This document shows, piece by piece, positions 8,401 to 11,400 of a stretch of 64,000 nucleotides of DNA (positions are counted from its first letter, which is position 1; the number at the start of each line of letters is the position of its first letter). A program made the position numbers and the translations under genes. Source of the DNA: Paratrimastix pyriformis (lineage: Eukaryota; Preaxostyla; Paratrimastigidae). The notes under the pieces are model-generated. The model was not told the origin of the DNA and made no database searches. It saw nothing but the letters and a program-made list of their open reading frames with translations. The stretch is taken from positions 248,001-312,000 of the forward strand of contig JAPMOS010000028.1 of NCBI GenBank assembly GCA_027972325.1, in the 5' to 3' direction.

Positions 8401-11400
8401 CCCACCCATTGCCACCCCACGGCCCTCGGCCCCCATCCTGCCCGTTGGCCCACAGGAGGCCGCCTCACCCGCCGAGGACGCGCCCAAGGGCGACGCGGTC
8501 CCGGGCAGCGAGCCCCCGCCCCAGCCGGGCAGCGCGGCCCCAGAAACCCCGGCGGGCGGCGAGGAGGAGAGCGGACCGGCCCCCATGGCCCTCGAGGCGG
8601 CCGAGGGGGACAAGGACGAGAAGGACGGCAAGGACAGGCTGCGAGATGACGAGCAGCAGGACCCCGAGGCCTCCCAGTCGCAGGCCCAGACGCAGACCCC
8701 GTCCAGCCAGAGCCAGAGCCAGAGCCAGACGCCCCAGGGCAAGCAGCGCAGGAAGCGCCCCACCCGGTTCGCATGCCGTCCCCCCCTCCCCCCAACAGGC
8801 CACCGCCCAGACCCCTGTGGTTGAGCACCTCGCCAAGCAGCCCTCGGGTGTGCCCTGCCGGCCATGGGATCCGGATGCCAAGCTCACTGCGCGGGTGGGG
8901 GCTGGGCGATCTGGTGGCTGGTGGCTGGTGGCTGGTGGCTGGTGGCTGGTGGCTGGTGGCTGGGGCGGCAGGGAGGTGCACTCGATCACCGAGACGATCC
9001 TCCTCAAGCAGCGTGCCTTGCCCTCGGCCACCGACAAGCCCGACGGTCCGCACCGCAGGCCTCGTCCTCCTCCCACCGCCCCGTCACCCTGGGGCGTGTG
9101 ACTCCTCAGCTGAGCATCTATCCATCATCATCGTCATCATCGTCATCATCGTCATCATCGTCATCATCACCATCATCCATCCATCCATCCATCCATCCAT
9201 CCATCAGCATCCATCAGCATCCATTAGCATCCATTAGCATCCATTAGCATCCACCAGCATCCACCAGCATCCATCCATCAGCATCTGCTGCTGCTGCTGG
9301 TGCTGCTGCTGATGATGATGATGATGATGATGATGATGATGATGATGATGATGATGATGATGATGATGATGATGATGATGATGATGATGATGATGATGAT
9401 GATGATGATGATGATGATGATGATGATGATGATGATGATGATGATGATGATGATGATGGATGATTGGATGATGATGCCTCATTCAATCATCACCATCACC
9501 ATCACCATCACCATCACCATCACCATCACCATCACCATCACCATCACCATCACCATCACCATCACCATCACCCTCGCTCGGTGGGATCGTCATGCAGCGA
9601 CGGCCGTGGGACCAGCGAGCGGGAGCCCGGCCGAGGGGCAGCCAGCCGAGGGCCCGCGCCGCTACCACCGGGAGGACGTCACCACCGTCCTCAGCGACGC
9701 CGAGGCCGTGCGGATCCTGACCCAGGCCCGCCCCCCTTGCACACTCCCCGCTCCCCCTTGCCCCATCCCCCGCCCTCCCCTGCCCTCCCTCCCTCCTGCC
9801 CTCCCTCCCCACACCATCCCCTGCCCTCCCTCCCCGCGACCCATCCCGCGTACCATCCTGCCCCCCATCCTGGCCTCCCGATCCCCTGTCCGCATGTGGT
9901 TTTTGGTCCGTGCTGCTGCAGCTCGACGTTGCCCTGCTCACCTCCGCCCTCGCCGCCTCGCTGCCCCTCCCCCATCTCCCCCGTGCCACCGCACCCCCTC
10001 AGACTGTGCACATGCTGATGGAGCTGCGGCTGTACCGCGAGTCGAGCCGGCTTGTGCAGCTCTGCCTGCGGTTCATCCCCTGGCCCAAGCCCCTCGAGGC
10101 CTCCCTCAGGCTGCTCACCGTCGGTCCGCACTGGCCGCCGCCGTCCCCCCTCTGTGCCTGCCCCGCCTTGGGCCCCTTCTTCAGATCCCCATCCCGTGGC
10201 CCGCCTGCCCGCCGCCTGTCCCCCAGCGGTTGCCTTCAACTCTGCCAACTATGTGGCGGCCCTGGACGTGGTGCGGCCCCTGTGCCTGGAGAAGCCCTAC
10301 AGCTTCGCCGTGTGGAGCCTCTACAACCGGGTCGACGTCAAGTCTGGCCGCCCCCCGCCCCTGCCCTCGGTGGGAAGGCGCAAAAACAACAGGGGAAAGA
10401 ACCTTCTGGTGGTGTGGTATGCCAATCTTGGCTGTTGCGTCGTCGTGCGTCCTGGTAACTGGGCGAAGTTGGTTGGGGTCGCTTGCCGCCGTGTCGCCGC
10501 GAAGATGGTGGCCGAAGTGACGACAAGGTGCGTGGTGCGGGGGGAGAGGGGGCCGCCGCCGCAGCGAATTGGCGGGGGGCGCCGGGGGCGTTGGGGCGGG
10601 GTCCAGTGGACTCGCAAGAAGCGACTTTAGCTCAGTAGCAGAGCGGAAGACTGCAGATCTTCAGGTCACCGGTTCGATTCCGGTAGGTCGCTTACCTTTT
10701 GCCGATTCTTTGGGTGTTGGTGTTTTTTTTGGCCTGGATCTGCAGTCTTCCGGATCCCATACTTTTTTCGGGGATGCGCTCTTCGCATATACCACCGACC
10801 GGGAAGTGCATCCACTCGCCAACCAACATCTCTTGGACGCTGCACGTCCCCCCACCTTCTTGTGGACAATCACATCTTGCTTGCCCTCATCAGCGCGCCA
10901 TGCATCCAGTATGCAATCCCCGTGCTTTGCTCGTCAGATGCTCACCTCCCTCCACGCCTCCTTCCCCCTCCCGCCTCGCTCCCCGGCAGGACGGGCTCGA
11001 CCACGCGCAACTACAAGTTCCTCATGCGGCTCCTGGCGGCGTACCCCCACTCGGCCCCCATCATGATCCTGGCCGGCAACAGCGCCTTCCTGGTCCGCAT
11101 CCCCCCCCCGCCCCGCCCCCCCCCCCCGCCCCGCCCCGCCCCGCCCCGTTCTCGCCGTTCTCGCCGTTCTCTCCCCGTTCTCTCCCCGTTCTCTCCCCGT
11201 TCTCGCCTCGGACGGCCGGCTGACACCACCTTGTTCCTGTTGTTGTCGGTGTTGCTGCTGTTGCTGTTGTTGCTGCTGCTTGGGGTGGGGGCACCAGTCG
11301 GGGCAGATGGCGGCCGCCCAGGCGGAGTACACTCAGGCCCTGCGGTACTATCCCAACGACCCCTTCCTCTACTTCCTCCTCGGTCCGCCTCCACCCGCCC

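What the first reader, a model, noticed from the sequence alone, without database searches (positions are those of the whole stretch)
10342..10989. A tRNA gene nested in an intron of the gene for TFIIIC, the factor that recognises tRNA genes
tRNA-Cys(GCA) at 10621-10692 lies in sense orientation inside a 648-nt intron of GTF3C3. TFIIIC binds the A and B boxes of tRNA genes, so the TFIIIC complex should bind inside the gene for its own subunit. TFIIIC/TFIIIB/Pol III on the intron could slow Pol II or affect splicing, giving a direct negative feedback on TFIIIC level. The tRNA, its boxes and the host identity are visible in sequence; the feedback is inference.
Basis: partly seen in the sequence, partly recalled or inferred. 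Interest (0 to 1): 0.9.

Follow-up and report, generated by a model that had tools for sequence, protein, structure and literature searches.

The report
tRNA gene inside a TFIIIC-gene intron
A real cysteine tRNA gene lies in an intron of the gene for a tRNA-gene-recognition protein, but this unnamed eukaryote seems to keep many of its tRNA genes inside introns, nearly always in the same direction as the host gene, so the pairing is more likely a habit of the genome than a feedback switch.

Summary
Observation confirmed. tRNA-Cys(GCA) at 10621-10692 (+) lies in sense in a 648-nt GTCTG...CAG intron (10342-10989) of a gene collinear with human GTF3C3; the donor is the exact complement of this genome's own (altered) U1 snRNA. 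The feedback reading is not supported. Of 66 distinct tRNAs in fetched loci, 25 fall in short predicted introns in sense, 3 in antisense, and 38 have no confident call; ten of the sense introns have homology on both sides of the tRNA (GTF3C3, SMC4, dynein-2 heavy chain twice, a kinase, GH31, others weaker). GTF3C3 is thus one host among many. The tRNA sits in a block of about 270 bp with two 97-99% identical copies within 13 kb, so local duplication can explain its arrival. In the closest tested precedent (Polr3e-MIR) only the antisense Pol III unit lowered expression. No tRNA was found in 6-8 kb around hits to GTF3C1, GTF3C5 and BRF1. Two surprises: nine of 14 tRNA-Cys genes carry a conserved downstream element, partly antisense to their own anticodon arm and found nowhere else in the genome; and all eight U1 loci found begin AUACAGACCUU, matching an unusual GTCYG donor consensus. 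Expression, binding and splicing are untested; no relatives were available.

The parts
5454..12105 (+). GTF3C3 (TFIIIC102/tau131 orthologue) gene, ATG 5454 to stop 12103-12105, modelled with about 21 introns; the middle (about 8450-9990, low complexity) is poorly modelled
10227..10341 (+). exon before the tRNA-bearing intron (ends ...SLYNRVDV K, phase 2)
10342..10989 (+). 648-nt intron GTCTGG...GGCAG
   Evidence: U1 complementarity
10527..10795 (+). block shared with two other tRNA-Cys loci on the same contig (97.4% and 98.5% identity)
10621..10692 (+). tRNA-Cys(GCA), sense to host
10628..10639 (+). A-box-like sequence TAGCTCAGTAGC
   Evidence: read from sequence
10671..10681 (+). B box GGTTCGATTCC
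   Evidence: read from sequence
10697..10700 (+). T4, first Pol III terminator-like run; a T8 run follows at 10723-10730
   Evidence: T-run lengths
10737..10761 (+). conserved downstream element GATCTGCAGTCTTCCGGATCCCATA; its first 16 nt are the exact reverse complement of 10644-10659 (anticodon arm); followed by T6 at 10763-10768
10990..11092 (+). exon after the intron (TGSTTRNYKFLMRLL...)
2631..2900 (-). second copy of the block, with identical tRNA-Cys at 2734-2805 (-); itself part of a roughly 2.4-kb inverted duplication (90% identity overall) with C201:244.3-246.6 kb

Best explanation
This is an ordinary, probably active Pol III tRNA-Cys gene that came to lie in a GTF3C3 intron when a short tRNA-bearing block was duplicated locally. 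It belongs to a genome-wide class of tRNA genes kept in short introns in the same direction as the host gene. Inferred mechanism: Pol III transcribes the tRNA from its own A and B boxes and stops at the T-runs; Pol II crosses it co-directionally and the spliceosome removes the intron. Antisense insertions, which would make Pol II and Pol III collide head-on and put A-runs near the acceptor, are purged, which leaves the strong sense bias. No dedicated feedback on TFIIIC is needed. Shown: tRNA, intron by homology and model, host, duplication, sense bias in the sample. Inferred: transcription, purging, direction of the duplication, absence of feedback.
For: Sense bias: 25 sense and 3 antisense of 66 distinct tRNAs in introns of at most 800 nt with both flanks scoring 12 or more. 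Random 73-nt positions in the same loci: 3472 tried, 1571 overlapped model exons; of the 1901 others 464 lay in such introns on either strand (301 on +, 210 on -, so about 13% per strand, same draw), against 38% sense and 4.5% antisense for tRNAs. Twelve model variants, including equal-cost splice sites and masking of the tRNA plus 20 nt, gave 20-24 sense to 2-3 antisense introns (one-sided p 5e-6 to 2e-4). Homology on both sides of a sense tRNA: GTF3C3, SMC4 (E 1.6e-75), dynein-2 heavy chain in two introns (profile 213|214 and 330|332), TKL kinase (191|192), GH31 (50|52), and more weakly NopRA1, D-Ala ligase-like and poly(A)-polymerase-like and Rubis-subs-bind. A T4 or longer within about 25 nt downstream in 66 of 66 tRNAs. 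Duplication: 98.5% and 97.4% over 269-271 bp, flanks largely unrelated. Precedent: sense MIR in an EGFP intron, no measurable effect; antisense, 20-30% decrease (PMC5358760 section 6).
Against: The gene finder is home-made, started from 953 homology-defined codons and self-trained. The sample is biased to Gln, Ile and Cys tRNAs; several tRNAs share an intron or host; 38 of 66 got no confident call. One antisense case is backed by homology (L026, TPR_TmcB hit over the junction). Direction of the duplication (into or out of the intron) is not proved. No RNA, ChIP or relative was available. The orientation-independent TFIIIB roadblock in yeast (cited in PMC5358760 section 9) could act here.
Confidence: 0.8

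Rival explanations
1. Autoregulatory feedback: TFIIIC/TFIIIB/Pol III on the intronic tRNA slows Pol II or changes splicing, lowering GTF3C3 when TFIIIC is high.
For: Box A/B tRNA inside a TFIIIC gene; a Pol III subunit gene with an intronic Pol III unit and interference is known (PMC5358760).
Against: Sense orientation, where the precedent found no measurable effect; many unrelated hosts; local duplication; none in the fetched GTF3C1, GTF3C5 and BRF1 regions (gene coverage may be partial).
Confidence: 0.07
2. Splicing aid: the tRNA fold, or its T-run terminator acting as a polypyrimidine tract in a C-rich genome, helps intron removal, so sense insertions are favoured.
For: By the models, median distance from tRNA 3' end to acceptor is 63 nt and 14 of 25 lie within 70 nt (recounted). 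Mitochondrial-type tRNA lookalikes in human introns enhance splicing (PMC7722341 abstract and passages).
Against: In GTF3C3 the distance is about 296 nt; in the human work some reverse-complement copies also worked, which would not give a strand bias.
Confidence: 0.12
3. The tRNA is matured from the Pol II pre-mRNA intron (snoRNA- or mirtron-like), which forces sense orientation.
For: Strong sense bias.
Against: Intact box B here, and T4 or longer downstream of 66 of 66 tRNAs, as expected for autonomous Pol III genes; 38 of 66 tRNAs had no confident host intron.
Confidence: 0.05
4. Not an intron or not this gene: mis-assembly or mis-modelled gene.
For: No transcript data.
Against: Collinear homology over the junction, donor complementary to U1, same ends with equal-cost splice sites and with the tRNA masked.
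Confidence: 0.02

Closest known systems
Intronic tRNA genes of Caenorhabditis elegans (PMC4999229, passages read)
   Same: Complete Pol III tRNA genes nested in introns of protein-coding genes; large share of all tRNA genes (44-47% there)
   Different: There 56% lie on the host strand and the intronic share fits chance; here 25 sense to 3 antisense in the sample
MIR in the first intron of mammalian Polr3e (PMC5358760, abstract and sections 6 and 9 read)
   Same: A Pol III unit inside an intron of a gene for the Pol III machinery; feedback proposed
   Different: MIR is antisense, conserved in mammals and tested; here a sense tRNA, untested, in a near-identical local duplication, with many non-Pol III hosts for its kind
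nimtRNAs, mitochondrial-type tRNA lookalikes in human introns (PMC7722341, abstract and passages)
   Same: tRNA folds within introns that may act on splicing
   Different: Lookalikes of mitochondrial origin, whose section heading says they are not processed as bona fide tRNAs in 293T cells; here standard nuclear tRNA genes with T-run terminators

Membership tests
Nuclear Pol III tRNA gene (type 2 promoter) | Cloverleaf with anticodon, score over Rfam gathering | tested here: met
   66.5 bits against 29
Nuclear Pol III tRNA gene (type 2 promoter) | Internal A and B boxes and T-run terminator | tested here: met
   10628-10639, 10671-10681, 10697-10700 (consensus recalled)
Nuclear Pol III tRNA gene (type 2 promoter) | Transcribed by Pol III | not testable with these tools
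   no ChIP or RNA data
GTF3C3/TFC4 (TFIIIC TPR subunit) | Orthologous sequence over N- and C-terminal TPR arrays | tested here: met
   three stretches to 8clk_D, E 6.9e-72; tau131 E 4e-30; TPR Pfam hits
Intronic tRNA gene class | tRNA between two exons of one gene | tested here: met
   (no transcript evidence)
Polr3e-MIR type autoregulatory nested Pol III unit | Antisense to the host | tested here: not met
   tRNA is on the host strand
Polr3e-MIR type autoregulatory nested Pol III unit | Arrangement conserved between species | not testable with these tools
   no relatives held for this genome
Polr3e-MIR type autoregulatory nested Pol III unit | Removal raises host expression | not testable with these tools
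   needs experiment

The most novel reading that the evidence does not exclude
The tRNA-Cys gene in the GTF3C3 intron carries, beyond its Pol III terminators, a conserved element that can pair with its own anticodon arm. Pol III transcripts end before it, so the tRNA folds; Pol II pre-mRNA contains both and the element folds the tRNA away, shielding the intron from RNase P/Z. Such self-masking would make sense-intronic tRNA genes tolerable.
Probability: 0.08. Interest if true: 0.8.

Novelty: new variant of a known kind. Interest (0 to 1): 0.5.

Why it matters
A genome in which many tRNA genes sit in introns and nearly all of those face the same way as their hosts would be a natural experiment on Pol II/Pol III conflict: it predicts selection against head-on, not co-directional, nesting, which one reporter study supports. 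It also warns that a tRNA inside a TFIIIC gene is not by itself evidence of feedback. The tRNA-Cys downstream element and the altered U1 snRNA with matching donor sites are separate leads that can be tested directly.

Tried and rejected
Retrotransposon primer-binding site for the downstream element: rejected, since the 19-mer pattern (one position G or A) was found only at nine tRNA-Cys genes at up to 2 mismatches. Antisense tRNA-Phe remnant: considered because five copies read TTCAG; the only other genes matching a Phe-type pattern have a different arm, so rejected. A general tRNA trailer: rejected for the sample, no non-Cys tRNA has more than 9 nt of reverse complement within 200 nt downstream. 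Pairing as the only constraint on the element: doubtful, because RATCCCATA outside the complementary part is equally conserved, and five of nine copies mismatch the middle anticodon base; yet expected pairing with the arm is 12.1-15.0 of 17 nt in seven copies tested against a mean of 0.3-3.7 for 50 shuffled elements each, though single shuffles reached 13.0 (window) and 14.0 (L057, above its real 12.9). In the minimum-energy folds L056 pairs the element locally instead. Link between the element and intronic location: all three tRNA-Cys with a confident intron have it, but so do six of the other eleven; not informative. Species identification by GTF3C3 and SMC4 searches failed. The window's tRNA-Ile 'antisense' call is probably an artefact that joins GTF3C3 to the next gene; it is still counted among the three antisense.

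Rows dropped: an ARAGORN call longer than 130 nt in the window (tRNA-Arg, 32904-33170) and tRNAs identical over 60 nt of flank were left out of the 66; L039 was left out because L063 covers it. In the count of ten homology-backed introns the paralogous kinase L032 was not counted beside L031.

Literature: intronic-tRNA searches were made; Polr3e; U1 searches. Only open-access texts of that library were searched.

Full report
WHAT IS THERE. The window is contig C201, 248001-312000, of an unnamed 56.06-Mb, 495-contig genome. Rfam and ARAGORN both find tRNA-Cys(GCA) on the + strand at 10621-10692. Exons on either side join in frame over a GTCTGG...GGCAG intron, 10342-10989, phase 2. The joined protein matches human GTF3C3 in three stretches (E 6.9e-72); the last stretch runs over the junction as one alignment, with a one-residue gap close to it. 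A second gene model, started from 953 codons of two homology-defined genes, found the same ends, and so did four runs in which every GT and every AG cost the same, two of them with the tRNA plus 20 nt masked.

THE DONOR SITE. In 82 introns called with equal-cost donors, GTCCG (32) and GTCTG (11) dominate; +3 is C in 65 and +5 is G in 54; GTAAG and GTGAG are not among the 15 commonest. Rfam finds eight U1 snRNA loci (50.8-60.2 bits, below the gathering score of 69.5). Four fetched copies keep a recognisable stem-loop I and Sm region but begin AUACAGACCUUG where the U1 consensus has AUACUUACCUGG, and a pattern search open at three of these positions finds that same start at eight places, the same eight loci. 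G at U1 position 6 pairs with C at +3; CAGAC pairs with GTCTG, the donor of the tRNA-bearing intron. C at +4, the commonest base, faces A and is not explained. This supports 10342 as a true donor. A diplonemid with one altered U1 beside a normal one is in print (PMC12621601, passages); the listings showed no full replacement that I recognised, but I read passages of only two of those papers.

HOW THE tRNA CAME THERE. The genome has 14 tRNA-Cys(GCA) loci by two searches. Positions 10527-10795 are 98.5% identical to 2631-2900 (-) and 97.4% to C201:245.8-246.1 kb; beyond the block only short matches remain upstream. Those two are themselves arms of an inverted duplication of about 2.4 kb, 90% identical overall. 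All three lie within 13 kb. Local duplication can therefore explain a tRNA-Cys landing in this neighbour gene. Which copy came first is not shown.

THE GENOME-WIDE PATTERN. tRNA loci were fetched by Rfam score (mostly Gln and Ile) and as the tRNA-Cys set, not by gene context; the window was added. Of 66 distinct tRNAs, 25 lie in a confident intron in sense and 3 in antisense; 38 have no confident call. Of 3472 random positions in the same loci 1571 are exonic by the model; of the other 1901, 464 fall in such introns on either strand (301 on +, 210 on -). Across 12 model variants the counts by intron were 20-24 sense to 2-3 antisense. Independent support comes from families split by the tRNA. 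PK_Tyr_Ser-Thr breaks at 191|192 and DHC_N2 at 213|214 and at 330|332, GH31 at 50|52, SMC4 is collinear at E 1.6e-75, and the dynein is best matched by dynein-2 heavy chain. NopRA1, D-Ala ligase-like and poly(A)-polymerase-like hosts match the same family, or two neighbouring domains of one protein, on both sides; here the NopRA1 halves and the right poly(A)-polymerase half score below Pfam's cut-offs. A Rubis-subs-bind hit spans its junction. Weaker and not counted: a formin, with a sub-threshold hit over the junction and its left side only when split, and a SpoU-type methylase. L031 and L032 are paralogous kinases with the tRNA-Gln intron at the same place and count as one. One antisense host, L026, is also supported by homology. 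Ten sense introns to one antisense by homology agrees with the models; I picked hosts for these scans from the confident calls and did not obtain hits for all of them.

WHY NOT FEEDBACK. Most recognised hosts have no known tie to Pol III. Around the GTF3C5, GTF3C1 and BRF1 hits 8, 8 and 6 kb hold no tRNA, though whole genes may not be covered. Yeganeh et al. put an intronic MIR in both directions: antisense lowered EGFP by 20-30%, sense had no measurable effect (PMC5358760 section 6); they also cite an orientation-independent TFIIIB effect in yeast (section 9). In C. elegans 44-47% of tRNA genes are intronic, 56% in host orientation, and the intronic share is not different from chance (PMC4999229 passages). 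The sense bias here is thus the unusual part. My reading is that head-on nesting is selected against and co-directional nesting is tolerated.

THE DOWNSTREAM ELEMENT. CAGTCTTCCGRATCCCATA occurs nine times in the genome at up to two mismatches, all exact, all on the tRNA strand downstream of tRNA-Cys genes, with none for the reversed control pattern (40-50 nt from the tRNA). Between six copies on different contigs or about 190 kb apart the 25-mer averages 95% identity, while spacer (46% against 44% shuffled), upstream (39 against 31%) and downstream (37 against 29%) are near background. So it looks constrained. Its first 16 nt are antisense to the anticodon arm, exactly in four copies and with one mismatch in five. 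A T-run of 4 or more lies between tRNA and element in 9 of 9, so Pol III should mostly stop before it. Its function is open; the masking model is given only as the most novel case.

LIMITS. No transcripts, no chromatin data, no relatives, no species name. The gene models are home-made. The number of tRNA genes is assumed, not counted. Everything about function is inference.

Noticed in passing
L080-L083 (C212:360323, C231:12923, C441:1065251, C24:520094) and four more loci: All eight U1 snRNA loci found begin AUACAGACCUUG instead of AUACUUACCUGG, and the donor consensus is GTCYG instead of GTRAG: U1 and 5' splice sites seem to have changed together. +4 C remains unexplained.
   Followed up: partly
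window 10737-10761 and eight other tRNA-Cys loci: 25-nt element found only downstream of tRNA-Cys genes (9 of 14), partly antisense to the anticodon arm, conserved while the spacer is not.
   Followed up: partly
L018 (C421:112544-115615): Three tRNA genes (Glu, Gln, Leu) each in its own predicted intron of one dynein-2 heavy chain gene, all in sense; two of the three junctions are backed by homology.
   Followed up: partly
L057 (C46:455501-461500): A tRNA-Cys with the same element lies in sense in an intron of SMC4. Condensin is known to meet TFIIIC at tRNA genes (recalled), another tempting but probably accidental pairing.
   Followed up: partly
L033 (C168:519614-522685): tRNA-Gln and tRNA-Thr share a predicted intron of a SpoU-type (possibly tRNA methyltransferase) gene; weak Pfam match.
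   Followed up: partly
six of 14 tRNA-Cys loci (L055, L058, L060, L062, L063, L064), upstream: A block of about 48 nt ending in TTTTCWTCAAGA directly before the tRNA is conserved in one subfamily of tRNA-Cys genes.
   Followed up: no
window 49664-49737 (-): tRNA-Ala(CGC) in a predicted 189-nt sense intron, 18 nt before the acceptor.
   Followed up: no
window 9268-9588 and similar stretches: Long GAT/CAC trinucleotide runs in or near modelled exons (poly-Met, Asp or His, by frame); many host-gene models also carry long Ile/Asn/His runs, which may be introns misread as exons.
   Followed up: no
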